Assembly (NCBI GenBank): GCA_963920705.1
Contig: OY987239.1
Coordinates: 11,229,004 to 11,293,003, forward strand
DNA length: 64,000 nt
Direction of reading: 5' to 3'
Origin: Odiellus spinosus
Taxonomy: Eukaryota; Arthropoda; Arachnida; Opiliones; Phalangiidae
Each line of letters starts with the position of its first letter. Position 1 is the first letter of the stretch. Both the position numbers and the translations under genes were made by a program. This document shows, in pieces, positions 646-59,254 of this stretch. Under the pieces are notes generated by a model. It had not been told where the DNA came from, did no database searches, and saw only the letters and a program-made list of their open reading frames with translations.

Positions 646-1472
646 GGAAAAACTAAAGCCAGTAAAAACAGAAGTAGATGAAACCCTCCTTTGAAGTCTA
701 CTACTCTAATGTTCGATATAGCGCTCCTCTCTGTATGGGTAAAATTCACAATTTTACGAGATCGGAGGGGTCCTACTTCATACCCCCCTGTCTACGGAAA
801 ATTGAAAATTCTCTCTCTCCACAAACGACGACGTTTTTTGACGAACTCCGAGGCTGCTAGAGATATTCGCTCGACGAACTCCAGCTCCGAAAATATCTAC
901 CGTTAGGAGGCGTACGAATCGCGCTTTTTTTAAACTAACCCATACAGAGAGGGGTAGACAAGACCAGGGAGTAATAGACTTCAAAGGAGGGTTTCATCGG
1001 CTTCTGGTAAAAATGAACAATATTCAAAACTAGAATCATTGAAATTAAAATACTAATAGTTAAAGGTTCGACTCTTTTTGTCGTTAATTATTACGCGATT
1101 ACTCCCACTCCAATTTCTATCGTTTGAATTTTAATTAATAGCGACGCTAATGAAGTAATTAACGAATATTTAGACAAGATGACGTACTAGTTGAAGTATT
1201 TTATAATTAGAAGAAAGCGTAATTACGGTAGTTTACGGGGAAAGGTCAAAGATGTATATCGAAAATCGTGATTTCCTGAAATTGCGTCAAGGTTAAGATC
1301 GTGGCAACGGAAAAATGTAATAATTAAGCCGGTTTTCGGTTTATTGACGTAATCTCGCGTGTATTTCCTCCCAATCTAAAGCTTTATAGATGTTTGCCGA
1401 ATAAAAATTGAAATTAAAATATTTAGAGACGAATTTCAGCGCCATCTAGGTAGTACTTTTTTCACTAAATAC
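646..1472 (+). mobile_element. F9 repeat, interrupted by M1 copy 1
   Basis: AAAAACTAAAGCCAGTAAAAA, then M1 (669-1006), then the F9 body ending CGCCATCTAGGTAGTA. Confidence 0.75.
669..1006 (+). mobile_element. M1 miniature element, copy 1 (family description)
   Basis: M1 is about 338 bp, non-coding, with inverted ends CAGAAGCCGATGAAACCCTC and inner repeated blocks around CCTCTCTGTATGGGT on both arms. I call + the orientation whose left arm reads CTACTACTCTAATG. This copy has the left-end variant CAGAAGTAGATG and a 7-bp target duplication GTAAAAA. It sits inside an F9 repeat; the F9 copy at 52846 shows the uninterrupted site. Confidence 0.95.
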
Positions 1473-1997
1473 AAAAAAGTGTGAACGCGGCTTTATTTCT
1501 CTCGTCATTTTTCAGTCGTACGGTGCACTAACACCTCTGCTGCTCTACTCATCCTTTCACCCTTTGGGGAGTTTTCTTTATTATAACTAGTCCGTAACCA
1601 AAAAGGGATTTTCCGAGGGAGAGGAGGGAAAGAGTCAGTCCCATCATACACCTTTAATTTGCTTAGTCGAAGGGTTTCCTCTCTCTAATGAAATCTTCCC
1701 CTTCAAAGCGTTTCTCTTCCAACTGAGAGAGCAATGTTTTTGTTCCTTCATCCCCATCCTCTTCCATTTTCACCCGAATTGTCTCTCGAGCTTCCAAGTT
1801 AACTTGTCTCAATTTTTTTATAAGAGGAGGACGTCGCTTTCCGCTCTAATCACCTATATTCTAATTGAATTTTTATTTCCATTTTTCTCGTTTTATGATT
1901 TTTATTGGCCAAACGTTTCCTTTATCTGATTTCTTTATTTTAACCTTTTGACCCCCCCATCCATAAAGGGAAAAATTATTTTAAAATTAAAATTATA
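1473..1997. other. No feature seen
   Basis: Pyrimidine-rich plus-strand sequence with no coding potential seen. Confidence 0.6.
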
Positions 1998-2551
1998 GAG
2001 CTCGGAATCGGATCGATCCATTATCTTCCGTTATTCGTATATTTTCAGATATTTTATTTTCGGATAAATTGTAACTAAAACATTGAAATTTCTATATTCG
2101 TATAATTGTTATAAGGTTTACCCGAAGATAAGCCTTCGCCGCTTTATCTACCTACAAATTACTCGTTTTCAACACGTATAACGATGGATAATTCGCGTTT
2201 CCAGAATAAAATATAAGAAAAATATAAGAAAATATTTCAAATTGACTTTTAATTCGAAGAATATAAATAAAACGACGAAACTAAGATTTTAAATCATCTT
2301 TTTATTCGTTATTTTTCACGGAAAATAAATTTTGAATGTTTTTTTATCCGAACGTATAACGCATCGGATAATATTCTAAGATAAGTTGCCATTTTTGTTG
2401 GATAATAAAAACGGATATGGATTAGGTTTTTGTTACTTTATCTTGGAATAAGTTAACTCGAATGAAGTCTATGTTTTAATCAAACAGATAATATACATCA
2501 GAATTTAGTAGATTTTATCCAATTAATAAAAATTATACGAATTCCGAGCTC
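1998..2551 (-). mobile_element. F3 element, complete copy
   Basis: About 554 bp with termini GAGCTCGGAAT...ATTCCGAGCTC flanked by TA on both sides, as expected of Tc1/mariner-type target duplication. AT-rich, non-coding. The + orientation of the family starts GAGCTCGGAATTCGTATAAT and ends GATCCGATTCCGAGCTC. Confidence 0.88.
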
Positions 2552-2553
2552 TA

Positions 2554-3422
2554 ATTATAATTCCGTAACATCATGATTTCTGAATTAACCTCTAATTTCC
2601 CCCTTAAAAGATGACGCTGTGAAGAGACTTCAAGATCGATAATAATTATCGATTGTAACGATATTTAAAAAGGTACGATATATTTTCAATAAAAAAGAAA
2701 TTCAAAAATATTTAAATATTATCTATAGTTTTAAATAAGTAAGATTAAATTTAATCTTAATTTAATAAACAAGATTTTATATTTCATTCAAGATGGCGAA
2801 ACGTGTCTTGCGAGGTAGAAAATATTTTTCAAAATCAATAAATAGATTACGCGGGAAATAAATAATAAATTTAAGGGTTTAAGTGTGCGTTTAATTCATA
2901 ATTAATGGTATTTTTAATAACTTGTTACGGAAAAAAGTAATACTTGCAAAAATAAACTGTTTTCACTAATTAAAAGGTAAATTAAATGGTTAAACTCTTT
3001 AAATGAAATTGTTACCGAAAGTCTATGACCTTATTCAACAAAAGTAAACATCGGTTGAAGTCGGTACTGTAAATAGTGAAATTGAAAGCGCCACACTGTG
3101 GAGAAATTTATTCCGAGATTGGGAGGGAGACAACATAGCCAAGCGTGGCCCGCCTAATTCCGTACTCTCTCCAGACTCAAAATATCCAGGAAGAGTCCAA
3201 ATAACTCAATCCAGACAGGGGTGATGACTTTTTTGTCTATTTTTAATTGATGGACTATATGACGTCTGCTTTAAACTTTTGATAGAACTACAATTGACGT
3301 TTCATGCCGGTCATCATGTTAGGACATTACAAGAGCTATGTCCTTATGTCTATGACCGTAAAATGCTAGTTTTTTTGGAGATTGTTGAAGAGTTAAGTCT
3401 AATAATATAAGAGATATAGCTG
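2554..3422. other. No feature seen
   Basis: AT-rich, no exon-like segment or repeat family recognised. Confidence 0.6.
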
Positions 3423-3444
3423 CCCTAATTAAAATATATTTTAT

Positions 3445-3782
3445 CAGAAGCCGATGAAACCCTCCTTTGAAGTCTACTACTCTAATGTTCGATATAGCGC
3501 TCCTCTCTGTATGGGTAAAATTCCCAATTTTACGAGATCGGAGGGGTCCTACTTCATACCCCCCTGTCTACGGAAAATTGGAAATTCTCTCTCTCCACAA
3601 ACGACGACGTTTTTTTGACGAACTCCGAGGCTGCTAGAGATATTCGCTGGACGAACTCCCGCTCCGAAAATATCTACCGTTAGGAGGCGTACGAATCGCG
3701 CTTTTTGAAACTAACCCATACAGAGAGGGGTAGACAAGACCAGGGAGTAATAAACTTCAAAGGAGGGTTTCATCGGCTTCTG
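3445..3782 (+). mobile_element. M1 copy 2, with 22-bp flanking direct repeat
   Basis: Both ends are complete, but instead of 7 bp the flanks share 22 bp (3423-3444 and 3783-3804, beginning CCCTAATTAAAAT and ending ATTTTAT). Confidence 0.95.
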
Positions 3783-3804
3783 CCCTAATTAAAATATATT
3801 TTAT

Positions 3805-4702
3805 CTAATCCCTGGTTGCTTTGCACCTTTAACTTTCGACCCAAAAACATCATATATTTACACTTTCTGACTTGCGAATGATGGTTTTGAGCTTGGCGTA
3901 GTCATGGTAACTATTTCATCTGTATCTCTCTCTCTATCTAGACGTTTTTCATTTCGTTTGCTTGGATTTCTTTTTCCATTTAGGAATGGAGGCCTAGTTT
4001 TTTTATATATTTTTAGATTGTACATTTGCATATGAAGGATATATAAAGACTGGAAAAAAATAAACGTGGACAATTCTGGGTTGGCTCTGAATTTCTGATG
4101 GGAAAAGTTTTCGTTTTGAGTTTTTTTTTTCGGGAATTATCAGAAGCCGATGAAACCCTCCTTTGAAGTCTATTACTCCCTGGTCTTGTCTACATCTCTC
4201 TGTATGGGTTAGTTTCAAAAAGCGCGATTCGTACGCCTCCTAACGGTAGATATTTTCGGAGCGGGAGTTCGTCCACCGAATATCTCTAGCAGCCTCGGAG
4301 TTCGTCAAAAAAACGTCGTCGTTTGTGGAGAGAGAGAATTTCCAATTTTCCGTAGACAGGGGGAGATGAAGTAGGACCCCTCCGATCTCGTAAAATTGTG
4401 AATTTTACCCATACAGAGAGGAGCGCTATATCGAACATTAGAGTAGTAGACTTCAAAGGAGGGTTTCATCGGCTTCTGGAATTATGTATACAAACATAAT
4501 TAGAATTTGAGATGGGGTCGCTTCGGACGTTGGGCAATTTATATTTTTTATCAAGTGACGACATTTCAATATAAATTGTTAATTTATTGGACCCTGATTA
4601 TCCAGTGGTCCTATATTACTTCAATATTTTAAAACACCCCCTATATTTTCCTATATTTCCTTTAAAGTCCTATAAAGTGATACGAGTTTATTCTCCGATA
4701 AT
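3805..4702. other. Only M1 copy 3
   Basis: Outside M1 (4141-4478) nothing is recognised. Confidence 0.6.
4141..4478 (-). mobile_element. M1 copy 3
   Basis: Complete ends; target duplication GAATTAT. Confidence 0.95.
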
Positions 4703-5427: not shown

Positions 5428-5764
5428 CAGAAGCCGATGAAACCCTCCTTTGAAGTCTATTACTCCCGGGTCTTGTCTACCCCTCTCTGTATGGGTTATT
5501 CTCAAAAGGCGCGATTCGTACGCCTCCTAACGGTAGATATTTTCGGAGCGGGAGTTCGTCGAGCGAATATCTCTAGCAGCCTCGGAGTTCGTCAAAAAAA
5601 CGTCGTCGTTTGTGGAGAGAGAGAATTTCCAATTTTCCGTAGACAGGGGGGATGAAGTAGGACCCCTTCTAACTCGTAAAATTGTGAATTTTACCCATAC
5701 AGAGAGGAGCGATATATGGAACATTGGAGTAGTAGACTTCAAAGGAGGGTTTCATCGGCTTCTG
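5428..5764 (-). mobile_element. M1 copy 4
   Basis: Complete ends; duplication GTTTTAA. Carries the variant block CTTCTAACTCG together with ATTCTCAAAAGGCGCG. Confidence 0.95.
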
Positions 5765-8105: not shown

Positions 8106-11100
8106 ATGATACCAAGCATGATGATACCGAAAAGGTTTATTTTAACATTCATGTTAAGCATAGGTACGGCAATATTATTTACCCTAAGAAACAGCCTTAA
8201 CTTGGCCATCGTTGCAATGGTCATATATCGAAACCCTAAACTAAATAATAGTGTAGGAACCCAGTGCTTCTACGAGGACAACGCTACAGGTGAAAGCACC
8301 GAAGATATATTAATGGAACAGGTATGCTTCATAAACGTTTTTTGACCATTGTCGACTAGGTTTCGACATCATTTACACCCTGATCAATGTGGGGGGACGT
8401 CAATCACCCCTTACTTGTTTTAGGCCGCGTAGATATTTTTCTCTACCTCAAAAAGCAGTGACGTCGTAAGGAATATTTAACAAATGGACAATAATTCGGG
8501 GTCCTTCAAGGGTCTTTTTCGGGGTCACTCAAGCTTGATCTCGGGGCCCTTGTTATTAACTTGATTTCGGGGCTATTTTGGGGGCCCTAAAGCTTGATTT
8601 TGCTTAATTTCGGGGTCTTTCCTACTTGATTTCGGGCCCGTTCTAACTTGATCCCACAACTGGTTGTTTGTTTCTTGAAAATTATTATTATAATTGATAT
8701 CTTTATAACAGGGCGGTTCATTTGACTGGGACGAGTACGTTCAAGGTAAAAATAATTTAAATAGTCAAGAATAAATTTGATTTTCAAGGGTCCTTTTAAA
8801 AGTAGGTATTATATAATTTTAGGCATGGTCCTTGGGTCATTTTACTACGGTTACGTTATAGACAGTTTTGTGGGAGGTTACTTGGCTGATCGTTTTGGTG
8901 GCAAACGCGTCTACGGTATAGGAGTTTTCGTTACAACCATTCTCCATATTTTAGGACCGGCTGTAGCCAACGTTGGCTATCAGTATTTTATGGCCCTAAG
9001 AGTAATTATGGGTTTGGCCGAAGTAAGTGTAACCAGAAGCCGATGAAACCCTCCTTTGAAGTCTATTACTCCCTGGTCTTGTCTACCCCTCTCTGTATGG
9101 GTTAGTTTCAAAAAGCGCGATTCGTACGCCTCCTAACGGTAGATATTTTCGGAGCGGGAGTTCGTCCACCGAATATCTCTAGCAGCCTGGGAGTTCGTCA
9201 AAAAAACGTCGTCGTTTGTGGAGAGAGAGAATTTCCAATTTTCCGTAGACAGGATGGATGAAGTAGGACCCCTTCTAACTCGTAAAATTGGGAATTTTAC
9301 CCATACAGAGAGGAGCGCTATATGGAACATTAGAGTAGTAGACTTCAAAGGAGGGTTTCATCGGCTTCTGGTGTAACCCTACACGCGAGATTATAAGCCC
9401 GATTCAAAGAGTGTGTTTATATTTTTTCAGGGCGTAATCCAACCATCCCAAATTACACTCGCAACCAAGTGGTTCACCACAACCGAAAGAGCTTTACTGT
9501 ACTCTTTCATTGTTACGGGTGGTCGCGTAGGAAACCTGGTGGCTACACCCCTAACAGCCGCTTTATGCGAGTCACCAGGCGGTTGGGAATCATCTTTCTA
9601 TTTTTTTGGTACGTTAATTTACTCTTTGTCTAGTTAAACATTATTTTATAATATCCGTACGTGCCTACGTCCGTAACCTTTTCCAGAATGTCCCTGGTTT
9701 TTGCTAGTATAAAATAAACCAGAAGCCGATGAAACCCTCCTTTGAAGTCTATTACTCCCTGGTCTTGTCTACCCCTCTCTGTATGGGATAGTTTCAAAAA
9801 GCGCGATTCGTACGCCTCCTAACGGTAGTTATTTTCGGAGCGGGAGTTCGTCCAGCGAATATCTCTAGCAGCCTCGGAGTTCGTCAAAAAAACGTCGTCG
9901 TATGTGGAGAGAGAGAATTTCCAATTTTCCGTAGACAGAAGGGGTCCTACTTCATCCCCCCTAACTCGTAAAATTGGGAATTTTACCCATACAGAGAGGA
10001 GCGCTATATGGATAGAGTAGTAGACTTCAAAGGAGGGTTTCATCGGCTTCTGAATAAACCCATAACAGCGCAATTATTCCTAAGATTATATCACTTTTGT
10101 TTCCATAGTGTTATTCCAGCTGTTTTTATATTTTTCACAACTTGTATCCGCATTTTTCGTAATATTAGAAAATTTTCTAAAATTATTCATTCTATTTTTT
10201 TCACACAATTTTGATTGTATTTTAACAATCTCTAGAAGATTCATCAAAATATAGCCAAGGAAACGTAATTATTTCGGTCAATACGTATTCTATGCGCAAA
10301 TTTCGATTTACGAAATTTTGTGAAGCTATTTCTTAATCATTTGCTCTTATACTATATAATCTCCTCTACAATATTCAAATTAGAATCCTTACATTTACCA
10401 AAACGAGTTAAATATTGAAACAATCACCCTAAAAAAAAACAACCAAATAATAACGGAAATTCAAAGCTCACTTACTGGGACATCGCGAACGATGGGGTTG
10501 ATGAAACCAAGAAGGATCAGATAAGGAGAGGAAATGTGGGGACGGCGCGGTTCCTACTGCGTCGGCCTAAACTCCCACTCTGGGAGATCGGGGGTAGAGA
10601 CGTTTCGTGGTAAAATGTTGTCACGTGGGTAAAACGAATCCTTTATGAGACGCGCTAGCTAGCGACCACGTGACAACAGTTTACCTCGAGAATTTCCTAT
10701 CCCCCCTTTCCACCCGAGTGGGAGGTTGGCTCTTCTCTCTCTAACTCAACGCAGCCCCACATTTCCTCTCCTTATCTGATCCTTCTTGATGAAACTCCGA
10801 TCCAAAAGCGAGGAGTAGTCAGTAGAGTCGAATAAGCCAGGGCCGAGGCTTAGCGCGAACTCCAAATTCAAACTCCAAATTCCGGTTGTTAGGCGACTTC
10901 AAATACACTTACGGCTGGTTTATCACGGGCCGTAGATTTGCATCGTAAGATCACTAGCCTAGGCTTCAAAAAAATGGCTACGTTGCCTACAAGTAGCGTT
11001 TTACTAACAATGATGCGCGCGCAGTAGTGAGTAGTCAGCAACAAATTATCAAGGCGGAGAACAGGGCTGGAAATAAACAAAAACCAGTTGATGGTAAATT

Positions 11101-13002
11101 GTATAAATAAGAAATAAATGTTTCTGGAAACTTGTAGAAAATTTTAAATTAGAAAATTGCCCGCTAGCGACGTTTTGTGATTTAAATAAATACGATAAAT
11201 TAAAAATATGATATCATCGTAATATCATTAAGCCTTGGTAATAAAATGTAGGCTTTAATTGACTGTTTTTTTTCAAAATCTTGGATTCCTTGTAAGAGGT
11301 CCACGGGTTAATAAACAGCACAGCCTTCGTAATTATCTCGTGTTTAATTATAGGTGGCCTGGGTGTTGTGTTTTCAATCTGTTGGTTTTGGATAACGGTT
11401 GAAAATCCATCGGATCATTCAACAATATCCCAGAAAGAGCTTTTGTATTTAACTGAGAGTCAAGGGGATTATAAGAACGTAAAGGTAGGATTATCCAAGC
11501 TTTTCAAATAATCCGCGTTTATATTTAAACAAGATTAGTAAAGATAAAGGTGCCAAGCCACGTGAATACTTGGAATCCGGGGTCTTTGAAACTGGTACCC
11601 TAAGCAATATCGATAAATACGATTGCAGTGTAATATTCATAATCGACGCAGCTGGGCTAATATTCGTGTAATTTTCATTTTAGGGGATTTATTTGTGTGT
11701 TTTTGTAGATACAAATTCCATGGAAAGAGCTTTTATTATCGCGTCATACGTGGATTTTTATAATTGCTGGTTTCATTGACTGTTGGTCTTACGACCTGAT
11801 GTTAATCAATGCGCCCATATTTTTGAACAAAATTTTAAAATTCGATATGGAATCGGTAATTATTATTATTAATTGAATATTATTAATTTATAATTACGAA
11901 ATGTTTAATTTAATTTACAGAACGCCTTGATTAATTCTCTCCCCTACTTGTTAAATATGGTCATGATACTATTATCAGGTTACCTCTCGAAAGTAATTAT
12001 CTCTAAAGAATGGCTATCAGTAACTCACACCAGAAAACTATGGTTCTTCATGGGCCATATATCTTCGTCCCTCATGTTGCTGGGTGTGACTTTCGTGGGT
12101 TGCGACCGAGTACCCGTTTTGTTACTGCTTTTCGGTGGACAAGCGATTGGTAGTGTCACAAATGCAGGGCTTAAAGTCGCCATCATGGACGTAGCTCCTA
12201 GTTACGCCGGTAAGCCCATGCCACAATTTAAAGTTACAGCATAGAATTTTTATAGAATTTTTCTAGAATTTTCCCGAACTTTCCCGAATCTTTCCCGAAC
12301 TTTCCCGAATCTTTCCCGAACTTTCCCGAACTTTCCCGAACTTTCCCGAACTTTCCCGAACTTTCCCGAACTTTCCCGAATCTTTCCCGAATCTTTCCCG
12401 AACTTTCCCGAATCTTTCCCGAACTTTCCCGAATCTTTCCCGAACTTTCCCGAATCTTTCCCGAACTTTCCCGAATCTTTCCCGAACTTTCCCGAATCTT
12501 TCCCGAACTTTCCCGAATCTTTCCCGAACTTTCCCGAATCTTTCCCGAACTTTCCCGAAACTTTCCCGAATCTTTCCCGAACTTTCCCGAATGTTCTAAA
12601 ATGTTCTAAAGTGTTTTAGAATGTTTTAGAATGTTCTACAATGTTGAACTAATTGATTATTTATCCGTGCAGGTACAATTACAAGTCTTTATAACGGATT
12701 CGCGAACTTTAGTGGTTTCTTAGGTCCGATGATGATTGGATCATTAACAAATAATAACGTGAGTAACGTAAAGAGAGGCTGTCACAAATATAGCATCCGG
12801 TGATTCCGAATTTCTTATTATTTAGCAAACCTTGGAGCAATGGTACAAAGCTTTCTACATCACTATAGCCATCAGTATATTCTGTGTCCTTTTATTTGTG
12901 TTATTTGGGACAGCGAAGCTTCAACCGTGGGGCAAGGCTAAAGAACTTCAAGAGAATAATCCCAAGACGAACAATGGCGACGTAACGATTACAAAATTTT
13001 AG
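8106..13002 (+). CDS. SLC17-type major facilitator transporter, copy A
   Basis: Nine exons: 8106-8321, 8712-8745, 8823-9022, 9431-9608, 11354-11484, 11709-11855, 11921-12209, 12673-12758 and 12826-13002 (stop TAG). All introns are GT-AG and phases agree throughout, giving 485 residues, the usual SLC17 length. SLC17 proteins are 12-helix organic-anion/phosphate/sialic-acid/glutamate symporters. Seen here: a first helix near residues 10-38 ending LRNSLNLAIVAMV; a luminal loop, then FDWDEYVQG leading into LGSFYYGY; the loop motif DRFGGK; RVIMGLAEG at the exon 3/4 junction; WFTTTER; and GGWESSFYFFG. The cytosolic segment ENPSDHSTIS is followed by IQIPWKELL (exon 6), and the last helix ends FGTAKLQPWGKAKE. 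The first ATG is chosen because the copy B ATG aligns with it. AATAAA lies at 13033-13038. Introns 3 and 4 carry M1 elements, intron 4 also carries M3, and intron 7 a minisatellite. Substrate cannot be told from sequence. The family call is firm and the exon borders are likely. Confidence 0.9.
8420..8645. repeat. Degenerate GATTTCGGGG-type minisatellite in intron 1 of copy A
   Basis: Irregular repeats of the form CTTGATTTCGGGGYC run through the middle of intron 1. Nothing like it is in intron 1 of copy B, which instead carries an F3 element. Confidence 0.6.
9034..9370 (-). mobile_element. M1 copy 6, in intron 3 of transporter A
   Basis: Duplication GTGTAAC. Lies 11 bases inside the 5' splice site. 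The same site and orientation are occupied in transporter B (16412), yet this copy carries the CTTCTAACTCG block and the other CTCCGATCTCG. Confidence 0.95.
9720..10052 (-). mobile_element. M1 copy 7, in intron 4 of transporter A
   Basis: Duplication AATAAAC. Slightly short (333 bp). Absent from intron 4 of transporter B. Confidence 0.95.
10508..10788 (+). mobile_element. M3 foldback miniature element, in intron 4 of transporter A
   Basis: 281 bp, ends CAAGAAGGATCAGATAAGGA, duplication ATGAAAC. Long GC-rich arms (GGAAATGTGGGG repeated inverted at the far end). Absent from transporter B. Confidence 0.92.
12262..12592. repeat. CTTTCCCGAA(T) minisatellite in intron 7 of copy A
   Basis: About thirty units of CTTTCCCGAA alternating between 10- and 11-base forms (with or without a T). 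It sits in intron 7, which is 463 bases here but only 60 bases in copy B, so the array expanded or was inserted after the gene duplication or was lost from copy B. Confidence 0.9.
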
Positions 13003-13186: not shown

Positions 13187-13514
13187 CAGAAGCCGATGAA
13201 ACCCTCCTTTGAAGTCTACTACTCTAATGTTCGATATAACGCTCCTCTCTGTATGGGTAAAATTCCCAATTTTTCGAGATCGGAGGGGTCCTACTTCATA
13301 CCCCCGTCTACGGAAAATTGGAAATTCTCTCTCTCCACAAACGACGACGTTTTTTTGACGAACTCCGAGGCTGCTAGAGATATTCGACGAACTCCCGCTC
13401 CGAAAATATCTACCGTTAGGAGGCGTACGAATCGCGCTTTTTGAAACTAACCCATACAGAGAGGGGTAGACAAGACCAGGGAGTAATAGACTTCAAAGGA
13501 GGGTTTCATCGGCT
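13187..13514 (+). mobile_element. M1 copy 8, right end lost
   Basis: Inserted in an F10 foldback repeat just downstream of transporter A. The right terminus stops at CATCGGCT, so no target duplication is visible. Confidence 0.9.
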
Positions 13515-14511: not shown

Positions 14512-17500
14512 ATGGTACCAAGCATCATGATACCGAAAAGGTTTATTTTAACATTTATGTTAAGCATAGGTACGGCAATATTATATGCCCTAAGAAACAG
14601 TCTTAACATGGCCATCGTTGCAATGGTCATATATCGAAACCCTAAAGTAAATAATAGTGGAGGAACGCAGTGCGTCTACGAGGAGGTCAATGAAGGTACA
14701 AGTGTCGAAGAGATATTGGAGGAACAGGTATGCTTTATTTGGAGCTTTTTTAAGGCCAAGGCTGCGTTCATTAACTCTTAGTAAAGTTTCCTAATTAAAG
14801 CTCGGAATTCGTATAATTTTTATTAATTGGATAAAATCTACTAAATTCTGATGTATATTATCCGTTTGACTTCATTGGAGTTAACTTATTCCAAGATAAA
14901 GTAACAAAAACCTAATCCATATCCGTTTTTATTATCCAACAAAAATGGCAACTTATCTTAGAATATTATCCGATGCGTTATACGTTCGGATAAAAAAACA
15001 TTCAAAATTTATTTTCCGTGAAAAATAACGAATAAAAAGATGATTTAAAATCTTAGTTTCGTCGTTTTATTTATATTCTTCGAATTAAAAGTCAATTTGA
15101 AATTTTTTCTTATATTTTAGACTCTGGAAACGCGAATTATCCATCGTTATACGTTTGAAAACGAGTAATTTGTAGATAGATAAAGCGGCGAAGGCTTATC
15201 TTCGGGTAAACCTTTTAATAATTATACGAATATAGAAATTTCATTGTTTTAGTTACGAACAATTTTTCCTTGAATAAAATATCTGAAAATATATGAATAA
15301 TTGAAGATAATGGATCGATCCGATTCCGAGCTCTAATTTTTACAGCCTAATCATATCAGCTGTTGTTTGTTTGATGAAAATTATGTTTTTAGTCATAATT
15401 GTAATCTTTAAAACAGGGCGGTTCATTTGACTGGGACGAGAATGTTCAAGGTAAAAATAATTTAAAGGAAGATTATTAGGTGAAAATTTCCTACCCATTT
15501 TATTTTTTTATCTGATTCCTTGCAATTAAATATATCCTGCTGAATTTTTTCACATTTTTTAAAAAATTATTTCGTTGAGAATTAATTATTTAAAACTTAA
15601 TTAGTCTTAGCTATGTGTTTGAATTTTTCACTGTTGCCAAAGGACCAATCAGAGCTAAGAGCCAATGACGGGAGACTCTATCGAAGTTAGATCGTAGAAC
15701 TCCTAGCGACATCTAGGTGATAATATAAAGATCTTGGTTTAAATTGAAGATTTGAAATAGAATAGTTTACTAATTTTCTCCAAAAGAAGCGGCAGCTACG
15801 TTTTAAAAACTATAAGCTTCGCTAGTAACGAGCTTTGGATGATAATGATGCCTACAATCTTTTATAAACCTAATTTTCATAAAAATCAAATCCAAAATTT
15901 AAACTACGTTATCACCTAGATGTCGCTAGGGTTTCTACTTTTTATCTTAGTAAGTCGGGGGATGAGTCCTTGGTTCTGATTGGCTCCTTGGCAATAGTAG
16001 AAAAATTCAAATGCATGTTTAGGATATAAAACTTTAAAAAAATATTTTCTAATAGTATTTGTACTTCAAAAATTATGAAACAATTCAGGGGAGCATATTT
16101 TTACATAAGGAATCAGAAAAAAAAAATACTTCATTTCAGCTAATAGTATCCCTTTAAATAGTCAAGGGTCCTTTTAAAAGTAGGTATTCTATAATTTTAG
16201 GCATGGTTCTTGGATCATTTTACTACGGTTACGTTATAGCCAATTTTGTGGGAGGTTACTTGGCCGAGCGGTTTGGTGGGAAAATCGTCTACGGTTCGGG
16301 AGTTTTCATCACAACCGCTCTCAATGTTTTAGGACCGGTTGTAGCCAACGTTGGCTATCAGTACTTTTTCGCGCTAAGAGTAATTATGGGTTTGGCCGAA
16401 GTAAGTGTAACCAGAAGCCGATGAAACCCTCCTTTGAAGTCTATTACTCCCTGGTCTTGTCTACCCCTCTCTGTATGGGTTAGTTTCAAAAAGCGCGATT
16501 CGTACGCCTCCTAACGGTAGATATTTTCGGAGCGGGAGTTCGTCCAGCGAATATCTCTAGCAGCCTCGGAGTTCGTCAAAAAAACGTCGTCTTTTGTGGA
16601 GAGAGAGAATTTCCAATTTTCCGTAGACAGGGGGGTATGAAGTAGGACCCCTCCGATCTCGTAAAAATGGGAATTTTACCCATACAGAGAGGAGCGCTAT
16701 ATGGAACATTAGAGTAGTAGACTTCAAAGGAGGGTTTCATCGGCTTCTGGTGTAACCCTACGCGCGAGATTATAAGCCCGATTCAAAGAGTGTGTTTGTA
16801 TTTTTTCAGGGCGTAACCCAACCATCTCAGATTACACTCGTTACCAAGTGGTTCACCACAACCGAAAGAGCTTTTCTGTACTCCTTCATGGTTATGGGTG
16901 GTCGCCTAGGAAACATGGTGGCTGCACCAATAACAGCCGCTTTATGCGAGTCACCAGGCGGTTGGGAATCATCATTCTATTTTTTTGGTGCGTTAATTGG
17001 TGTAATTGTAATAAAAATAGACCCCTAATATAAGGCATACAAGATTTACATTAACCCGTATAACATAAGAGGCGATTCTACCTTTTAGGTGGCCTTGGTG
17101 TAATGTTTTCAATCTGTTGGTTTTGGATAACGGTTGAAAATCCATCGGATCATTCAACGATATCCCAGAAAGAGCTTTTGTATTTAACTGAGAGTCAAGG
17201 GGATTATAAGAACGTAAAGGTAGGATTATCCAAGCTTTTCGCATAATCCGCGTTTATATTTAAATAAAAGATTAGTAAAGATAAAGGTGCCAAGCCACGT
17301 GAATACTTGGAATCCGGGGTCTTTGAAACTGGTACCCGAAGCAGTCTCGATAAATACGATTGCAGTGTAACATCAGAAGCCGATGAAACCCTCCTTTGAA
17401 GTCTACTACTCTAATGTTCGATATAGCGCCCCTCTCTGTATGGGTAAAATTCACAATTTTACGAGATCGGAGGGGTCCTACTTCATACCCCCCTGTCTAC

Positions 17501-19164
17501 GGAAAATTGGAAATTCTCTCTCTCCACAAACGACGACGTTTTTTTGACGAATTCCGAGGCTGCTAGAGATATTCGCTCGACGAACTCCCGCTCCGAAAAT
17601 ATCTACCGTTAGGAGGCGTACGAATAGCGCTTTTTGAAACTAACCCATACAGAGAGGGGTAGACAAGACCAGGGAGTAATAGACTTCAAAGGAGGGTTTC
17701 ATCGGCTTCTGGTAACATTCATAATCGACGCAGCTAGGCTAATATTCGTGTAATTTTCATTTTAGGGTTTTTATTTGTGTGTTTTTGTAGATACAAATTC
17801 CATGGAAAGATCTTTTATTATCGCGTCACACGTGGATTCTTATAATATCTGGTTTCGCAGACAGTTGGACTTACGAACTGATGTTAATCAATGCGCCCAT
17901 ATTTTTGAACAAGATTTTAAAATTCGATATGGAATCGGTAATTATTATTATTAATTTAATATTATTAATTTATAATTAATGTTTAATTTAATTTACAGAA
18001 TGCCTTGATCAATTCTCTCCCTTACTTGTTAATCATGGTCATGATACTATTATCAGGTTACCTCTCGAAAGTAATTATCTCTAAAGAATGGCTATCAGTA
18101 ACTCACACCAGGAAATTATGGTACTTCATGGGCCATATCTCTTCGTCCATCACGTTGCTGGGTTTGACTTTCGTGGGTTGCGACCGAGTATCTGTTTTGT
18201 TACTGTTGTTCGGTGGATTAGCGATTGATAGTGTCACGAATGTTGGGGCTAAAGTCGCCATCATGGACGTAGCTCCTAGTTACGCCGGTAAGTCAGAATT
18301 TTTACGTGTTTTAAAAAGCAGCTTTGAACTATTTGAATATTTATCAGGTACAATTACAAGTTTTAATAATGGACTAGCGAACTTCAGTGGGTTCTTAGGT
18401 CCAATGATGATTGGATCATTAACAAATAATAATGTGAGTAACCATTTTTCTAGTAGTGTGGATATTATCAGAGGTATATAATAACCCCCTTCGGGGGGAA
18501 GTATGAAAGTCTATACTACCAATGCTAAAAATCACGAACAACGAGAGCCCGCTGCTGACTATCTAGGCCACTAGCTCGCGCTGGACTTCTCAATGTCGCT
18601 ACTCTATAGTAAATTGTCTTTGTATAAACAAGACGGCTCGATTTGTGTTTAGAACTTCCTGTCTCGGGAGTCAGGCTGTCTGTTAAAATGGAGTCGAAGG
18701 TTGACTTCGGCTCGCGAGTTCCGGAAGCGCGCGTAGGGAAAATTTAGTCAGGTTCAAAATGGTGTAACTATTTTTTGGGAGTAAAGCGGTGTGTCGATCC
18801 GCCGCGATTTACGCCGGGCACTCGTTGTTCGTCGATTTAGCCTACCTTTCATACTTCACCCCGAAGGGGTTATTATATACCTCTGATATTATACAGCATA
18901 GAGACAGCCCTACCAAGAAGGCATTTCATTTAAAAGTTGGTGTTAAAATTATTGGTGTAAATCTGAATTTCTTATACTTTTTAGCAAACATTGGAACAAT
19001 GGTACAAAGCTTTCTACATCACCATAGCAATCAATATCTTCAGCGTCCTTTTATTTGTGTTATTTGGGACAGCGAAGCTTCAACCATGGGGCAAAGCGAA
19101 AGAACTTCAAGAAGAGAATATTCCCAAGACGAACAACAGCGACGTTACTATTACAAAACTTTAG
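14512..19164 (+). CDS. SLC17-type major facilitator transporter, copy B
   Basis: Tandem duplicate of the gene at 8106. Exons: 14512-14727, 15417-15450, 16201-16400, 16810-16987, 17089-17219, 17791-17937, 17999-18287, 18348-18433 and 18985-19164 (TAG), giving 486 residues. Every exon has the same length and phase as in copy A except the last, which is three bases longer. Divergence is uneven: exon 5 differs by one residue in 44, exon 6 by 7 of 49, and exon 1 most strongly in the loop after residue 50. The family motifs (FDWDENVQG, LGSFYYGY, ERFGGK, RVIMGLAEG, WFTTTER, KLQPWGKAKE) are all kept, so both copies look functional, perhaps with different substrates or sites of expression. Intron 4 uses the less common donor GTGCGT. 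Insertions: F3 in intron 1, a TTAA element in intron 2, M1 in introns 3 and 5, M2 in intron 8. Intron 7 is 60 bases and stop-free in frame, so retention would add 20 residues. Confidence 0.9.
14797..15333 (+). mobile_element. F3 element in intron 1 of transporter B
   Basis: Near complete; left terminus reads AAAGCTCGG. Absent from intron 1 of transporter A. Confidence 0.88.
15466..16153 (+). mobile_element. F7 foldback element at TTAA, intron 2 of transporter B
   Basis: 688 bp between duplicated TTAA. Ends AGGAAGATTATTAG / CTAATAGTATCCCT. Long imperfect arms include CGACATCTAGGTGATAA and its inverse, and AACCAATCAGAGC-like blocks. Intron 2 of transporter A has the single TTAA (8757-8760), so the element arrived after duplication. 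No other copy in the window. Confidence 0.9.
16412..16749 (-). mobile_element. M1 copy 9, in intron 3 of transporter B
   Basis: Duplication GTGTAAC at the position equivalent to copy 6. Confidence 0.95.
17374..17711 (+). mobile_element. M1 copy 10, in intron 5 of transporter B
   Basis: Duplication GTAACAT. Transporter A has the empty site (near 11629, a single GTAATAT), which defines the element ends exactly. Confidence 0.97.
18469..18885 (-). mobile_element. M2 miniature element, in intron 8 of transporter B
   Basis: 417 bp with ends CAGAGGTATATAATAACCCC; 7-bp duplication ATATTAT. The subterminal regions form second inverted blocks around ACGAACAACGAG. Opposite in orientation to the other two M2 copies. 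Non-coding. Confidence 0.93.
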
Positions 19165-21838: not shown

Positions 21839-22154
21839 CAAGAATTCATTCAGGTTCCATAAGAATATGGGAGGGCCGCGATTCAATAACCATCCTCCCA
21901 AACTTTGTAGCGAAAGTTCGTCCGCTTCGAATCGATTTTTCAAGTAAATCGCTCCTGACATCTATTATTAACCCGCGCCACTAACGACCTTGACATAATA
22001 TTTTGGGTAATAAAAATGGAGCCGACCGAAAAAAGATCTAAGCGTACAAATGTTGCGAAAATTGCGGACGAACTTTTGTTACAAAGTTTGGGAGGATGGT
22101 ACCAGAGGCTAAAGCTACGCTCCCATATTCTTATGGAACCTGAATGGATTCTTG
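21839..22154 (+). mobile_element. M4 foldback miniature element
   Basis: 316 bp, ends CAAGAATTCATTCAGGTTCC, duplication CTAATAT. Inner arms repeat ACCATCCTCCCAAACTTTGT in inverted order. Confidence 0.92.
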
Positions 22155-32949: not shown

Positions 32950-33288
32950 CAGAAGCCGATGAAACCCTCCTTTGAAGTCTATTACTCCCTGGTCTTGTCT
33001 ACCCCTCTCTGTATGGGTTAGTTTCAAAAAGCGCGATTCGTACGCCTCCTAACGGTAGATATTTTCGGAGCGGGAGTTCGTCGAGCGAATATCTCTAGCA
33101 GCCTCGGAGTTCGTCAAAAAAACGTCGTCGTTTGTGGAGAGAGAGAATTTCCAATTTTCCGTAGACAGGGGGAGATGAAGTAGGACCCCTCCGATCTCGT
33201 AAAATTGGGAATTTTACCCCATACAGAGAGGAGCGCTATATCGAGCATTAGAGTAGTAGACTTCAAAGGAGGGTTTCATCGGCTTCTG
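32950..33288 (-). mobile_element. M1 copy 16
   Basis: Duplication CTATTAC. Confidence 0.95.
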
Positions 33289-39800: not shown

Positions 39801-42680
39801 ACTTTAAATCATAATTTCGGATTAATTAAGCGGATTTAAAAATATTTAAATATATAGGAAGGGACCTTTTTATTTCTAAATTACTGTTTTATCAGAAGCC
39901 GATGAAACCCTCCTTTGAAGTCTATTACTCCCGGGTCTTGTCTACCCCTCTCTGTATGGGTTAGTTTCAAAAAAGCGCGATTCGTACGCCTCCTAACGGT
40001 AGATATTTTCGGAGCGGGAGTTCGTCCACCGAATATCTCTAGCTGCCTCGGAGTTCGTCAGAAAAACGTCGTAGTTTGTGGAGAGAGAGAATTTCCAATT
40101 TTCCGTAGACAGGGGGGGAAGAAGTAGGACCCCTCCGATCTCGTAAAATTGTGAATTTTACCCATACAGAGAGGAGCGCTATATCGTATATTAGAGTAGT
40201 AGACTTCAAAAGGAGGGTTTCATCGGCTTCTGGATTTAACAATAGATTTTTTTCGTTTAGACTCTATTGAAACCCATTTCCTCCAAGATTAGCCTGTCTT
40301 AATCAAGATCGGCTTAGATCTTGATTAACCCGGAGCCGCTGAATCATTACAGATTATCGAGCGACAATAAACAGTTAAAAAAAAAGTCAAAAGCCACGCA
40401 GTTAAGATAGAGTAAAAAAATATATATTTATGTAAAAAAATTTGCGTATACCCTTAGAACAAAGGCAAATTTCCATTGAAAAACTAGTCACGCAAAGGGG
40501 AAAATAAGCCCCATTATAAACTGCAACTTAGTATATAGGTTATATATATTTTTTTTTCCCAAAACTTTTAATCTTATCCTTTTTTATTTAAGAAAGTATC
40601 TTCAGGCGTACACTTAATATCTTCCTAGACGTTATATAAAGGTCAAACCTCATAAAAACATTTGAAACCTTTCGAGTTTCTTCCCCGATTTTAACCCAAA
40701 ATTGAGATCTCGAAGCTAGAATTATTTAGTCGCTGTTCCTTTCAATTTAGATGAAAAAATATAATTATTATATTTCATTCTACACGGATTTCGAGAAACA
40801 AGATATTTTTTATATTTAATTGACATTATCCCTTTGAATAAACGCGTAATTTGTTTAATTTGTTTATTAATTAAAATTTTATCTCCGGGTCTAATTCGTA
40901 TCCAGCATTTAATACGCGTCTATATAATTTATGGTTTTATATTAATTATATTAATTTATCCGAGATTAATAATATCTGAAAATAAGCTTAGTTATTAATG
41001 GATATCCGAAGTTATTCTTTATCCGATTATGAGCTCTACTTCCCCTTTAAAAATGTGTATTTATCCGCTGAGTACTTTTTACTAGGTTTGAACAAAACTT
41101 AGAAAAGAATATAATAAAAAAAAAGGTAAAAAAAATGCGGTAATAGTCTTCTAGTGTGGATAATGGTGGCCCTATTTCCGAAAAGAGCCCTTAGCGAATA
41201 AAACTTGGGTCTTTAGTAGTGAGAAGGAAGTGCTCCTCTCTCCCCACCCTCTCGCTTTGAGGCTTTCAGGGAATCCTTCCTTTTTAAAGCTTATAAAAGT
41301 TATCAGATTTTTACGATCAGTCGATATAGAATAACTTTCTTTACGCATGAACGATGATTTACAAAGTTACGAGAAACAATGGGAGTGCACTTAGAGTATA
41401 TATTTTTACTTAATCAGGTAAGATAAAGACAGCTCGGAATTCGTATAATTTTTATTAATTGGATAAAATCTACTTAATTCTGATGTTATATTATCCGTTT
41501 GATTAAAAATAGACTTCATTCGAGTTAACTTATTCCAAGATAAAGTAAAAAACAACCTAATCCATATCCGTTTTTATTATCCAACAAAAATGGCAACTTA
41601 TCTTAGAATATTATCCGATGCGTTATACGTTCGGATAAAAAACATTCAAAATTGATTTTCCGTGAAAAATAACGAATAAAAAGATGATTTAAAATCTTAG
41701 TTTCGTCGTTTTATTTATATTCTTCGAATTAAAAGTTAATTTGTATTTTTTTCTTATATTTTAGACTCTGGAAACGCGAATTATCCATCGTTATACGTTT
41801 GAAAACGAGTAATTTGTAGATAGATAAAAGCGGCGAAGGCTTATCTTCGGGTAAACCTTTTAACAATTATACGAATATAGAAATTTCATTGTTTTAGTTA
41901 CAATGAATTCCTTGTATTTATTTTTCCCCCGTTTTTTCTTTCGTTCAATTTCTTTCGTTTCCTTGTTTTGAAACAAAAATGAAACCATTGCGTATGATTT
42001 AAAGTGAGACTGAAGAGGATGAGTTACAATGATTACATCAAACCTAAATTTTAGAGTGGAGAAAGGTAAAGGGTTTAAAAGACTCTAGTGCGAACGCGCC
42101 TAAAGTCTGTAATGTGAACAAGGCCTCGTGGACAAAATTATTTTCCTATTCAGCTCGCCTTCAAACATATACATATGATAGAAAAAAGACGTCTATTAAA
42201 TGGGTAGATATAAAGTTTACCTCTTATAAACTTCTAAACAATAGGATAGCCTCCAATGAATTGAGATACAAACAGTATAACCAAGAATTCATTCAGGTTC
42301 CATAAGAATATGGGAGGGCCGCGATTCAATAACCATCCTCCCAAACTTTGTAGCAAAAGTTCGTCCGCTTCGAATCGATTTTTCAAGTAAATCGCTCCTG
42401 ACATCTATTATTAACCCGCGCCACTAACGACCTTGACGTAATATTTTGGGTAATAAAAATCGAGCCGACCGAAAAAACATCTAAGCGTACAAATGTTGCG
42501 AAAATTGCGGACGAACTTTTGTTACAAAGTTTGGGAGGATGGTACCAGAGGCTAAAGCTATGCTCCCATATTCTTATGGAACCTGAATGGATTCTTGGTA
42601 TAACTCCATTCGTGGCCCACAAAACTGGTCAAGACGGTATATGGGGAAAGTTTCGGATGGACGTGATGTTTCCCAGACTC

Positions 42681-44060: not shown

Positions 44061-44399
44061 CAGAAGCCGATGAAACCCTCCTTTGAAGTCTATTACTCCC
44101 TGGTCTTGTTTACCCCTCTCTGTATGGGTTAGTTTTAAAAAGCGCGATTCGTACGCCTCCTAACGGTAGATATTTTCGGAGCGGGAGTTCGTCCACCGAA
44201 TATCTCTAGCAACCCTCGGAGTTCGTCAAAAAAACGTCGTCGTTTGTGGAGAGAGAGAATTTCCAATTTTCCGTAGACAGGGGGGTATGAAGTAGGACCC
44301 CTCCGATCTCGGAAAATTGTGAATTTTACCCATACAGAGAGGAGCGCTATATCGAAAATTAGAGTAGTAGACTTCAAAGGAGGGTTTCATCTACTTCTG
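44061..44399 (-). mobile_element. M1 copy 20, in the GPCR 3' untranslated region
   Basis: Starts 22 bases after the GPCR stop codon. No clear target duplication. Right-end variant CATCTACTTCTG. Confidence 0.93.
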
Positions 44400-47438: not shown

Positions 47439-47650
47439 CAGAAGTAGATGAAACCCTCCTTTGAAGTCTACTACTCTAATGTTCGATATAGCGCTCCTCT
47501 CTGTATGGGTAAAATTCCCAATTTTCCGAGATCGGAGGGGTCCTACTTCATACCCCCCTGTCTACGGAAAATTGGAAATTCTCTCTCTCCACAAACGACG
47601 ACGTTTTTTTGACGAAATCCAAGGCTGCTAGAGATATTCGCTCGACGAAA
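47439..47650 (+). mobile_element. M1 copy 21, truncated
   Basis: Left end variant CAGAAGTAGATG is present; similarity stops about 212 bases in, at CTCGACGAAATC. Confidence 0.9.
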
Positions 47651-47805
47651 TCAAAGATTTATTAACAATTATATTGGATTTGGTTTCTCATGAAAAAACA
47701 TAAAAAAATCCACATATTTCTTTGGGTTAAAGTGTCCTTAGAAAATGAACAAAATGAAAACGTTCAAAATATAAAAATAATTTGTTTTCTAATATATGAC
47801 GTCGT

Positions 47806-48857: not shown

Positions 48858-49138
48858 CAAGGAGGATTAGACAAGGAGAGGAAATGTGGGGCTGCGTTGA
48901 GTTAGAGAGAGAAGAGCCAACCTCCCACTCGGGTGGAAAGGGGGGATAGGAAATTCTCGAGGTAAACTGTTGTCACGTGGTCGCTAGCTAGCGCGTCTCA
49001 TAAAGGATTCGTTTTACCCACGCGACAACATTTTACCACGAAACGTCTCTACCCCCGTTCTCCCAGAGTGGGAGTTTAGGCCGACGCAGTAGGAACCGCG
49101 CCGTCCCCACATTTCTTCTCCTTGTCTAATCCTCCTTG
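48858..49138 (-). mobile_element. M3 copy, intergenic
   Basis: 281 bp, ends CAAGGAGGATTAGACAAGGA, duplication ATATAAC; inverted relative to the 10508 copy. Confidence 0.92.
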
Positions 49139-57253: not shown

Positions 57254-57257
57254 TTAA

Positions 57258-57693
57258 ACCCAGAAAAGTTCAAGAATCAAGTAGTGGTCAGAAGGGGAAA
57301 TAAAAATTGTATCAGGAATAGAGAATTTACTGGATGGGCTAAATCTAAAGGCATTATAGCCACGGGAGCAAAGGTCAAATTTCCCGTACACTATAGGGAA
57401 AGAAACAGTCCTGAGGAAGAGACCTTAATGACCCCTGACACTCGGCTGACCCCAGGAGCCAATTTCATCGTACCGCTCGGTTGAACGGCCCGCGTTGAAA
57501 TTAGCCAAGGGTGAAGGAGCCAACGAGATTCCATGCCTTACAGACATTTAACTTTACGCTATCTTTCCCCACCTTCCTTATAAAGATACGTTCAAACTAT
57601 ACGATTTTCAATAAAACTTTGGCGTTAAGCCTAAGGAATCTATATGCTGGGGAAAATTCCCAAAATACGATGTTTACTCGAGTTTCCTAACAC
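57258..57693 (+). other. Unrecognised open frame between F5 and M1
   Basis: A frame without stops runs from about 57260 to the stop at 57484 and includes GWAKSKGIIATGAKVKFP and LTPGANFIVPLG. Composition is more coding-like than nearby DNA, but it starts at the edge of an F5 element, has no ATG in a good place and no splice partner I can find. It may be an exon fragment or part of an unknown repeat. Confidence 0.3.
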
Positions 57694-58017
57694 CAGAAGC
57701 CGATGAAACCCTCCTTTGAAGTCTATTACTAACCCTCTCTGTATGGGTTATTCTCAAAAGGCGCGATTCGTACGCCTCCTAACGGTAGATGTTTTCGGAG
57801 CGGGAGTTCGTCCAGCGAATATCTCTAGCAGCCTCGGAGTTCGTCCAAAATACGTCGTCGTTTGTGGAGAGAGAGAATTTCCAATTTTCCGTAGACAGGG
57901 GGGTATGAAGTAGGACCCCTTCTAACTCGTAAAATTGGGAATTTTACCCATACAGAGAGGAGCGCTATATGGAACATTAGTGTAGTAGACTTCAAAGGAG
58001 GGTTTCATCGGCTTCTG
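57694..58017 (-). mobile_element. M1 copy 22
   Basis: Complete ends with a short internal deletion (324 bp). Flanks CTAACAC and CTGCTAC match poorly. CTTCTAACTCG subfamily. Confidence 0.93.
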
Positions 58018-58110
58018 CTGCTACGTAATATAATTATTATTAAACAGCTTTAACTATTTAAATATTTAAAGAATTGTTTAATTAAAACTCTAAAAGTAAA
58101 TTAAAGAATT

Positions 58111-58571
58111 AATAGAATTTTTTATTAATTGGATAAATCTACTAAATTCTAATTATCTGTTTGATTAAAAATAGACTATCCGTTTTTATCCAAAATGGCA
58201 ACTTATCTTAGAATATTATCCGATGCGTTATACGTTCGGATAAAAAACATTCAAAATTTATTTTCCGTTAAAAATAACGAATAAAAAGATGATTTAAAAT
58301 CTTAGTTTCGTCGTTTTATTTATATTCTTCGAATTAAAAGTTAATTTTGAAATATTTTTCTTATATTTTAGACTCTGGAAACGCGAATTATCCATCGTTA
58401 TACGTGTTGAAAACGAATAATTTGTAGATAGATAAAGCGGCGAAGGCTTATCTTCGGGGTAAACCTTTTAACAATTATACGAATATACAAATTTCATTGT
58501 TTTAGTTACAATTTATCCGAAAATAAAATATCTGAAAATATACGGAAGATAATGGATCGATCCGAGCCCTA
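58111..58571 (+). mobile_element. F3 element, eroded
   Basis: Left terminus lost and several small deletions; right end reads GATCGATCCGAGCCCT. Confidence 0.8.
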
Positions 58572-58916
58572 ATTTTAGTTTGAACGACCCTTTTTTTTTC
58601 CCACTTTCTTTCGGAACTATTCCAACTAGATTTTCTTTTCTCTTCTTTGAATCTTTGGTTCATCTTTGCCTAGTCTTCTTGTATATTATAAGAACAGGAA
58701 GCTAACCACCATTTACAGAGACTTATCTTTTCATCCGGCTAACAAAATTCGCTGACATTTAAAAAAAGGTATCTGATAATGACGGACTAGAAAGTTCCTT
58801 TCATTGAAGAAAAGCTACCTACATTTTTATATTAAGGATTAAAAATTTGCTTTTTAATTAAAAGCAAGGTAATCTTTTTTAAACTTAGTTTGCAGGGAAT
58901 TTAGAAAATATATTAT

Positions 58917-59254
58917 CAGAAGCCGATGAAACCCTCCTTTGAAGTCTATTACTCCCTGGTCTTGTCTACCCCTCTCTGTATGGGTTAGTTTCAAAAAAGC
59001 GCGATTCGTACGCCTCCTAACGGTAGATATTTTCGGAGCGGGAGTTCGTCCAGCGAATATCTCTAGCAGCCTCAGAGTTCGTCAAAAAAACGTCGTCGTT
59101 TGTGGAGAGAGAGAATTTCCAATTTTCCGTAGACAGGGGGTATGAAGTAGGACCCCTCCGATCTCGTAAAATTGGGAATTTTACCCATACAGAGAGGAGC
59201 GCTATATGGAACATTGGAGTAGTAGACTTCAAAGGAGGGTTTCATCGGCTTCTG
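58917..59254 (-). mobile_element. M1 copy 23
   Basis: Duplication ATATTAT. Confidence 0.95.

What the first reader, a model, noticed from the sequence alone, without database searches (positions are those of the whole stretch)
669..59254. Four miniature families share 7-bp target duplications with a palindromic NTNNNAN site
M1, M2, M3 and M4 differ in internal sequence but all begin CAGAAG, CAGAGG or CAAGRA and all duplicate 7 bp. In 19 independent sites with exact duplications (13 M1, 2 each of M2, M3, M4) position 2 is T in 16 and position 6 is A in 18. Known hAT elements make 8-bp duplications with an nTnnnnAn preference and CAG-type ends. This looks like the same geometry one base shorter, suggesting one transposase lineage, hAT-like or P-like, with a 7-bp stagger that mobilises all four. 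No transposase is in the window.
Basis: partly seen in the sequence, partly recalled or inferred. Interest (0 to 1): 0.75.

Follow-up and report, generated by a model that had tools for sequence, protein, structure and literature searches.

The report
P-element MITEs with 7-bp target duplications
Four tiny, very abundant jumping-DNA families in this genome all copy 7 bases of their target on insertion; at least one of them is a shrunken form of a P-type transposon from the same genome, and the 7-base palindromic target is already known from the fruit-fly P relatives 1360 and Galileo.

Summary
Adding loci from elsewhere in the same 443-Mb genome, 33 of 46 two-ended copies have an exact 7-bp duplication and none has an exact 8-bp one. 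The bias is not base composition. An empty paralogous site confirms insertion plus duplication.

M4 is a deletion derivative of a P-superfamily element. A 4,320-bp copy carries M4's ends (96% and 95% identical), P-transposase sequence and a perfect 7-bp duplication. A relative carries a THAP domain and a 786-aa ORF with P RNase H and GTP-binding domains. Three further coding P elements here also make 7-bp duplications.

No coding partner of M1, M2 or M3 was found at 71 P loci, so their assignment rests on shared duplication, target palindrome and end anatomy. Their different ends argue for several related P transposases, not one. 7-bp duplications at GTnnnAC-type targets are published for 1360 and Galileo, so this is a new member of a known kind, though unusually abundant (about 23,000 copies).

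The parts
669..1006 (-). M1 copy, TSD GTAAAAA
3445..3782 (-). M1 full-length, no matching TSD
4141..4478 (+). M1 reference copy, TSD GAATTAT; 14-bp subterminal inverted repeat at offsets 56/59
5428..5764 (+). M1, TSD GTTTTAA
6795..7132 (-). M1, TSD CGAGTAC
9034..9370 (+). M1, TSD GTGTAAC; flanks duplicated at 16412 (not independent)
9720..10052 (+). M1, TSD AATAAAC
10508..10788 (-). M4, TSD ATGAAAC
11577..11696 (+). Empty paralogous site of the M1 insertion at 17374 (94% over 120 bp of joined flanks)
13187..13514 (-). M1, nearly complete (match lacks the 4 terminal bases)
16412..16749 (+). M1, TSD GTGTAAC, shares flanks with the 9034 insertion
17374..17711 (-). M1, TSD GTAACAT, empty site at 11577-11696
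18469..18885 (-). M2, TSD ATATTAT
20169..20506 (-). M1, TSD ATTATAT
21839..22154 (+). M3, TSD CTAATAT; 21-bp subterminal inverted repeat at 51/55
24316..24654 (-). M1, TSD GTTAAAC
24934..25270 (-). M1, TSD with 1 mismatch
25962..26378 (+). M2, TSD CTTTTAG; 12-bp subterminal inverted repeat at 55/67
27716..28052 (+). M1, TSD ATTCTAG
28450..28786 (-). M1, no exact TSD
30053..30471 (+). M2, TSD with 1 mismatch (CTAAGAC/CTAAGAG)
32950..33288 (+). M1, TSD CTATTAC
37231..37568 (+). M1, TSD with 1 mismatch
38823..39161 (-). M1, TSD GTAGCTT
39893..40232 (+). M1, no exact TSD
42282..42597 (+). M3, TSD GTATAAC
44061..44399 (+). M1, no exact TSD
47439..47652 (-). M1, truncated
48858..49138 (+). M4, TSD ATATAAC; the copy whose ends were matched to the P elements L043 and L045/L046
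57694..58017 (+). M1, no exact TSD
58917..59254 (+). M1, TSD ATATTAT

Best explanation
M1-M4 are non-autonomous miniature elements (MITEs) of P-superfamily transposons, moved in trans by P transposases encoded elsewhere in the same genome. The transposase binds the 31-38-bp terminal repeats and probably the subterminal repeats, cuts the element out and joins it to target DNA with a 7-bp stagger at a palindromic TnA[GTAnTAC]TnA-type site; gap repair leaves the 7-bp duplication. Shown: duplication length and target motif for all four; empty sites for two M1 copies; that M4's ends are those of P elements, one of them with a 7-bp duplication; that three other coding P elements here have 7-bp duplications. 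Inferred: that M1, M2 and M3 are also P-driven, and that each family has its own cognate P transposase rather than one shared enzyme.
For: Duplication and target: 33 of 46 two-ended copies have an exact 7-bp duplication, 0 an exact 8-bp one, and M1 alone and M2-M4 alone show similar palindromes. M4 partner: L045/L046 (G000:C2:23518804-23523123, 4,320 bp) matches M4 positions 1-99 at 96% and 153-281 at 95%, and matches the transposase part of L043 at 93% over 1,245 bp; its flanks are ATAGATC on both sides and the 8th base differs. L043 matches M4 positions 7-131 and 154-270 (85% and 88%) on either side of a THAP-domain frame and a 786-aa ORF with PF21787 and PF21788. Other coding P elements with inverted ends and 7-bp duplications: L042 (GTAGAAT), L047 (CCCTGCT), L051 (GTTTATA). 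A scan with duplications of 6, 8 and 9 bp gave no pair over the threshold in those three loci. L041, L051, L042 and L043 proteins match the solved Drosophila P transposase 6p5a (E 8e-88, 1e-19, 2e-12, 1e-7). The four MITEs share one layout: a 31-38-bp terminal repeat, then a subterminal inverted repeat of 9-21 bp at offsets 51-67. The L042 family has short copies of its own: 121 terminal words, with at least twelve pairs 366-380 bp apart among the 100 listed.
Against: No coding partner for M1, M2 or M3 at 71 P-domain loci taken from the 150 scored hits (386 candidates); 59 of the 71 were checked only in a 1.3-kb stretch where left ends were expected. The four P elements' own duplications show T2 in 3 of 4 but A6 in only 1 of 4. 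T2/A6 bias is weaker outside the window (9 and 7 of 13). L042, L047 and L051 have no subterminal inverted repeat of 9 bp or more, and M4's 9-bp one is only just above the 95% point of the shuffles. hAT domains are also abundant in this genome (150 scored hits) and no hAT locus was fetched to look at its ends. The L043 left end is scrambled and gives no duplication; the long frames are in L043, the intact duplication is on L045/L046.
Confidence: 0.88

Rival explanations
1. M4 is a P MITE, but M1, M2 or M3 belong to other superfamilies that happen to make 7-bp duplications, for example an odd hAT branch or Dada.
For: No coding partner found for M1-M3 at 71 P loci; hAT transposase domains are abundant here and their ends were not examined. 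Dada makes 6-7-bp duplications (PMC3706591, passages).
Against: The extended target palindrome is similar in M1 and in M2-M4. The hAT element hobo has 8 bp in 1,196 of 1,198 insertions (PMC3276498, passages). The Dada families in the passages seen insert into small RNA genes, and the U6/U1 types lack terminal inverted repeats, whereas M1-M4 have 31-38-bp repeats and Rfam at its gathering thresholds finds no RNA gene in the window.
Confidence: 0.1
2. One single P transposase mobilises all four families.
For: Same duplication length, similar target palindrome, similar end layout; all begin CAG or CAA.
Against: Beyond the first bases the terminal repeats differ. M4's ends match its own P element closely, and no M1-M3 ends were found on that element. 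Three further P elements have yet other ends, and for two of them terminal words occur in short-spaced pairs of their own.
Confidence: 0.07
3. hAT-like transposase with a stagger shortened by one base.
Against: M4's relative L043 has P, not hAT, domains. 7-bp duplications at GTnnnAC-type targets are published for the P relatives 1360 and Galileo.
Confidence: 0.04
4. The T/A bias is only AT-rich composition and the duplications are chance.
For: The window is 64% A+T.
Against: Slid-frame control 20.8 on average, maximum 27, against 50 of 64 observed; empty sites exist.
Confidence: 0.01

Closest known systems
1360 (Hoppel), P superfamily, Drosophila
   Same: 7-bp duplication as modal length (274 of 279 sites) and palindromic target GTTNAAC (PMC3276498, passages); outer motif ANAGT/ACTNT (PMC4168063, passages), which shares the A directly outside the duplication that is favoured here.
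   Different: Here the third base outside position 1 is mostly T, where that motif has A. Sequence relation to 1360 transposase was not tested: no 1360 sequence was at hand.
Galileo, P superfamily, Drosophila
   Same: 7-bp duplications, consensus GTATTAC / GTANTAC, 15-bp palindromic target motif (PMC4168063, passages).
   Different: Galileo has very long, internally repetitive terminal repeats; here they are 30-38 bp. Three Galileo copies in that paper have 8 bp; none of 46 copies here.
P-MITEs of Anopheles gambiae
   Same: Short elements sharing ends and duplication length with coding P elements of the same genome; master terminal repeats 27-31 bp (PMC1562414, passages).
   Different: 8-bp duplications there, 7-bp here; 44-571 copies per family there, about 2,300-13,000 here.
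Drosophila melanogaster P element
   Same: THAP, RNase H and GTP-binding domains; 31-bp terminal repeats plus 11-bp internal inverted repeats (PMC7776569, passages); sequence match to 6p5a.
   Different: 8-bp duplication, target GTCCGGAC.
hAT elements such as hobo
   Same: Palindromic target with T at position 2 and A at the mirror position (NTNNNNAN).
   Different: 8-bp duplication; different transposase superfamily.

Membership tests
P superfamily (M4) | Ends shared with a coding element carrying THAP, RNase H-like and GTP-binding domains | tested here: met
   the domain-bearing copy L043 and the best end-matching copy L045/L046 are relatives, not one copy
P superfamily (M4) | 7- or 8-bp duplication on the transposase-bearing element itself | tested here: met
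   ATAGATC, 7 bp, on L045/L046; range 7-8 bp for P stated in PMC5199201 (passages)
P superfamily (M1, M2, M3) | Ends shared with a coding P element | tested here: inconclusive
   Not found at 71 P loci, 59 of them sampled only at the expected left end
P superfamily (M1, M2, M3) | 7- or 8-bp duplication at a GT..AC-type palindrome | tested here: met
   (20 M1, 4 M2, 4 M3 independent exact sites)
P superfamily (M1-M4) | Terminal repeats of about 30 bp plus subterminal inverted repeats | tested here: met
   M4's second repeat is borderline, and it is absent from the coding elements L042, L047 and L051
1360/Galileo branch of P | 7-bp duplication | tested here: met
1360/Galileo branch of P | Transposase groups with 1360/Galileo | not tested
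   No 1360 or Galileo transposase sequence was available from a tool
hAT | 8-bp duplication | tested here: not met
   0 of 46 two-ended copies
hAT | hAT transposase in the partner | tested here: not met
   For M4: only P-type domains; untested for M1-M3
Dada | Insertion into small RNA genes | tested here: not met
   No Rfam match at gathering threshold in the window; insertion sites outside the window not tested

The most novel reading that the evidence does not exclude
A 7-bp stagger, not the textbook 8, is the general state of the P superfamily outside the Drosophila P / Anopheles P / THAP9 group: in this genome P elements from families as distant as L042 and L051 all make 7 bp. Stagger length would then be a deep, lineage-level property of the transposase, and this genome, with many long P reading frames and about 23,000 tagged insertions, would show which feature of the enzyme sets it.
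Probability: 0.35. Interest if true: 0.5.

Novelty: new member of a known kind. Interest (0 to 1): 0.36.

Why it matters
It replaces a guess (hAT-like or P-like) by a tested assignment for one family and a strong inference for three. It shows the 7-bp, GTnnnAC-type mode of the Drosophila elements 1360 and Galileo as the mode of very abundant MITEs and of four P elements in another genome, and gives a defined P-element/MITE pair (M4) to study. The contrast of 7-bp and 8-bp P transposases makes it testable what sets the stagger.

Tried and rejected
A search for coding partners of M1, M2 and M3 failed. 71 P-domain loci were checked: ten of 6.6-7 kb (L040-L044, L047-L051), L039 (5 kb), L045/L046 (two pieces), and 59 left-end stretches of 1.3 kb (L052-L110). 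L083 looked M1-like at its supposed left end, but L111 showed no matching right end; taken as chance.

Two M3 ends about 5 kb apart on contig C1 looked like a coding M3 element; the fetched stretch held two separate M3 copies and no match to the P proteins.

Ends could not be resolved for L039, L040, L041, L044, L048, L049 and L050. L041, the closest of the four tested to the Drosophila P element, would have been a useful 8-bp test; nothing reliable was found.

The L043 left end is rearranged and the element holds a nested repeat, so it gives no duplication.

Paper searches: one search found nothing; some searches gave listings, from which I opened passages of six papers. Further Galileo papers in the listings were not opened. 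I make no claim that these MITE families or 7-bp P elements outside Drosophila are unpublished.

Full report
What is in the window. A search for elements that start with CA, have matching inverted ends and are flanked by equal 7-mers returns 20 elements: 14 M1 (333-339 bp), 2 M2 (417 bp), 2 M3 (316 bp) and 2 M4 (281 bp). Including copies without an exact duplication the window holds 21 two-ended M1 copies, two incomplete M1 copies and 3 M2. The M1 copies at 9034 and 16412 lie in duplicated DNA, so 19 sites are independent.

Beyond the window. Pooling the window with the fetched loci gives 46 two-ended copies: 33 with an exact 7-bp duplication, 5 with one mismatch, 8 with two to six mismatches, none with an exact 8-bp duplication. 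The 32 independent exact sites (20 M1, 4 each of M2, M3, M4) have T2 in 25 and A6 in 25; by family T2/A6 is 14/16 of 20, 4/3 of 4, 4/4 of 4 and 3/2 of 4. The preference is real but weaker outside the window: 9 and 7 of 13. The summed score is 50 of 64; the same frame slid over the flanks gives 20.8 on average, at most 27. Counted on both strands, the palindrome reads roughly T-n-A | G-T-A-n-T-A-C | T-n-A; the outer T is 27 of 40 in M1 alone and 16 of 24 in M2-M4 alone, the A directly outside 18 of 40 and 13 of 24. These are small samples.

Insertion is real. The joined flanks of the M1 copy at 17374 match an unoccupied copy of the same repeat at 11577-11696 at 94% over 120 bp, with the 7-mer present once. 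A second M1 (in L007) sits in a repeat with four unoccupied copies in the window at 80-83%.

Copy number. Terminal words occur 26,149 times for M1, 4,678 for M2, 5,768 for M3 and 9,330 for M4, allowing two mismatches; reversed-word controls gave 0, 2, 0 and 4. At two ends a copy this is about 13,000, 2,300, 2,900 and 4,700 copies; relatives within two mismatches are included. Mean pairwise identity is 96% among 32 M1, 97% among 5 M2, 98% for 2 M3 and 97% among 3 M4.

Which transposase. The genome has many P-type transposase domains: 150 scored PF21787 matches of 386 candidates, several in long open frames. hAT domains are also present (150 scored of 220 candidates), so abundance alone does not decide. 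At one P locus, L043, M4 positions 7-131 and 154-270 lie in the proper orientation on the two sides of the gene (85% and 88%). The locus has a frame with a THAP domain (PF05485) and a 786-aa frame with the TNP-like RNase H N-terminal and GTP-binding domains. Its left end is rearranged and gives no duplication. A relative 1.3 Mb away (L045/L046) matches M4 positions 1-99 at 96% and 153-281 at 95%, and L043's transposase part at 93% over 1,245 bp; it is 4,320 bp long and flanked by ATAGATC on both sides, with the eighth base not matching. Its frames look short (longest 232 aa in the L046 piece; the middle was not fetched). M4 is therefore a deletion derivative of a P element that makes 7-bp duplications; the best coding frames and the intact duplication are on two related copies.

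Other P elements of this genome. Three more coding P elements have clear inverted ends and equal flanks: L042, 5,318 bp, GTAGAAT; L047, 5,343 bp, CCCTGCT; L051, 4,581 bp, GTTTATA; in each the match stops at 7. Scans for 6-, 8- and 9-bp duplications gave no pair over the threshold in those three loci. So 4 of 4 resolved P elements have 7 bp; the ends of seven other P loci could not be resolved. The four duplications have T2 in 3 but A6 in only 1. L042 and L043 proteins are about 39% identical; L043 and the L047 gene (seen as L035) 57%. The L051 gene (seen as L024) has none of L042, L043 or L035 among its six best relatives, and it matches the Drosophila P transposase better (E 1e-19) than L042 (2e-12) or L043 (1e-7). 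The L042 family has 121 terminal words within three mismatches, at least twelve pairs of them 366-380 bp apart among the 100 listed, and the L047 family 71, with pairs such as 642-903 bp apart: they too appear to have short copies; those copies were not fetched.

M1, M2 and M3. No coding partner was found at 71 P loci. 59 of the 71 were sampled only in the 1.3 kb where left ends of resolved elements lie, so a partner with an unusual left part would be missed, and the remaining scored hits were not sampled there. No hAT locus was fetched. The case for P rests on the shared 7-bp duplication, the similar extended palindrome and a shared layout: a terminal repeat of 31-38 bp followed by a second inverted repeat at offsets 56/59 (M1, 14 bp), 55/67 (M2, 12 bp), 51/55 (M3, 21 bp) and 65/65 (M4, 9 bp). 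The 95% point of shuffled controls is 9 bp for M1-M3 and 8 bp for M4, so M4's repeat is borderline. The coding elements L042, L047 and L051 lack a second repeat of 9 bp or more.

Mechanism. Shown: insertion with 7-bp duplication at a preferred palindrome, and derivation of M4 from a P element. From established knowledge: P transposase binds terminal and internal sites, excises the element and joins its ends to staggered target positions; the stagger sets the duplication (PMC7776569, passages). Inferred: M1-M3 are moved likewise, each by a P transposase recognising its own ends, since the terminal repeats differ between families. A single enzyme for all four is not excluded, but its only support here is the shared duplication, target and end layout.

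Comparison with what is known. In Drosophila melanogaster the modal duplication is 7 bp for 1360 and 8 bp for P and hobo; the motifs are GTTNAAC, GTCCGGAC and GTNCGNAC (PMC3276498, passages). Galileo makes 7-bp duplications with consensus GTATTAC inside a 15-bp palindrome (PMC4168063, passages). A survey of insect MITEs gives 7-8 bp for P (PMC5199201, passages). P-MITEs with coding masters are known from Anopheles, with 8 bp (PMC1562414, passages). What this adds is the families themselves, their abundance and the 7-bp duplications of four P elements in one genome. The host was not identified.

Noticed in passing
window 50544-52334: Tandem array of about 103 copies of a 17-bp unit (TCATCTGTCCGACTCGG).
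   Followed up: no
window 61711-63566 and 53666-54736: Satellite-like arrays with 173-bp (10.7 copies) and 175-bp (6.1 copies) units.
   Followed up: no
window 19225-19708, 31959-32427, 34564-35272, 47966-48449: Four dispersed short tandem arrays of a 216-222-bp unit. Sequence at the edge of these arrays (around 19672, 32392, 35237 and 48423) matches the joined flanks of an M1 insertion in L007 and serves as empty sites.
   Followed up: partly
L043:805-1304: A roughly 500-bp repeat with long inverted arms is nested in the P element; one arm (about L043:1100-1304) matches some 40 listed places in the genome, mostly at 97-99%.
   Followed up: no
G000:C1 about 3.1-10 Mb: No exact M2 terminal word is listed between 3.13 and 10.06 Mb of contig C1, a stretch with many P transposase hits; possibly a transposase-rich, MITE-poor region. 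M3 and M4 words do occur there.
   Followed up: no
L041 (G000:C16:6739400-6746400): A 929-aa open frame very similar to Drosophila P transposase (E 8e-88) without reliable inverted ends; possibly a domesticated THAP9-like gene or a canonical P element.
   Followed up: partly
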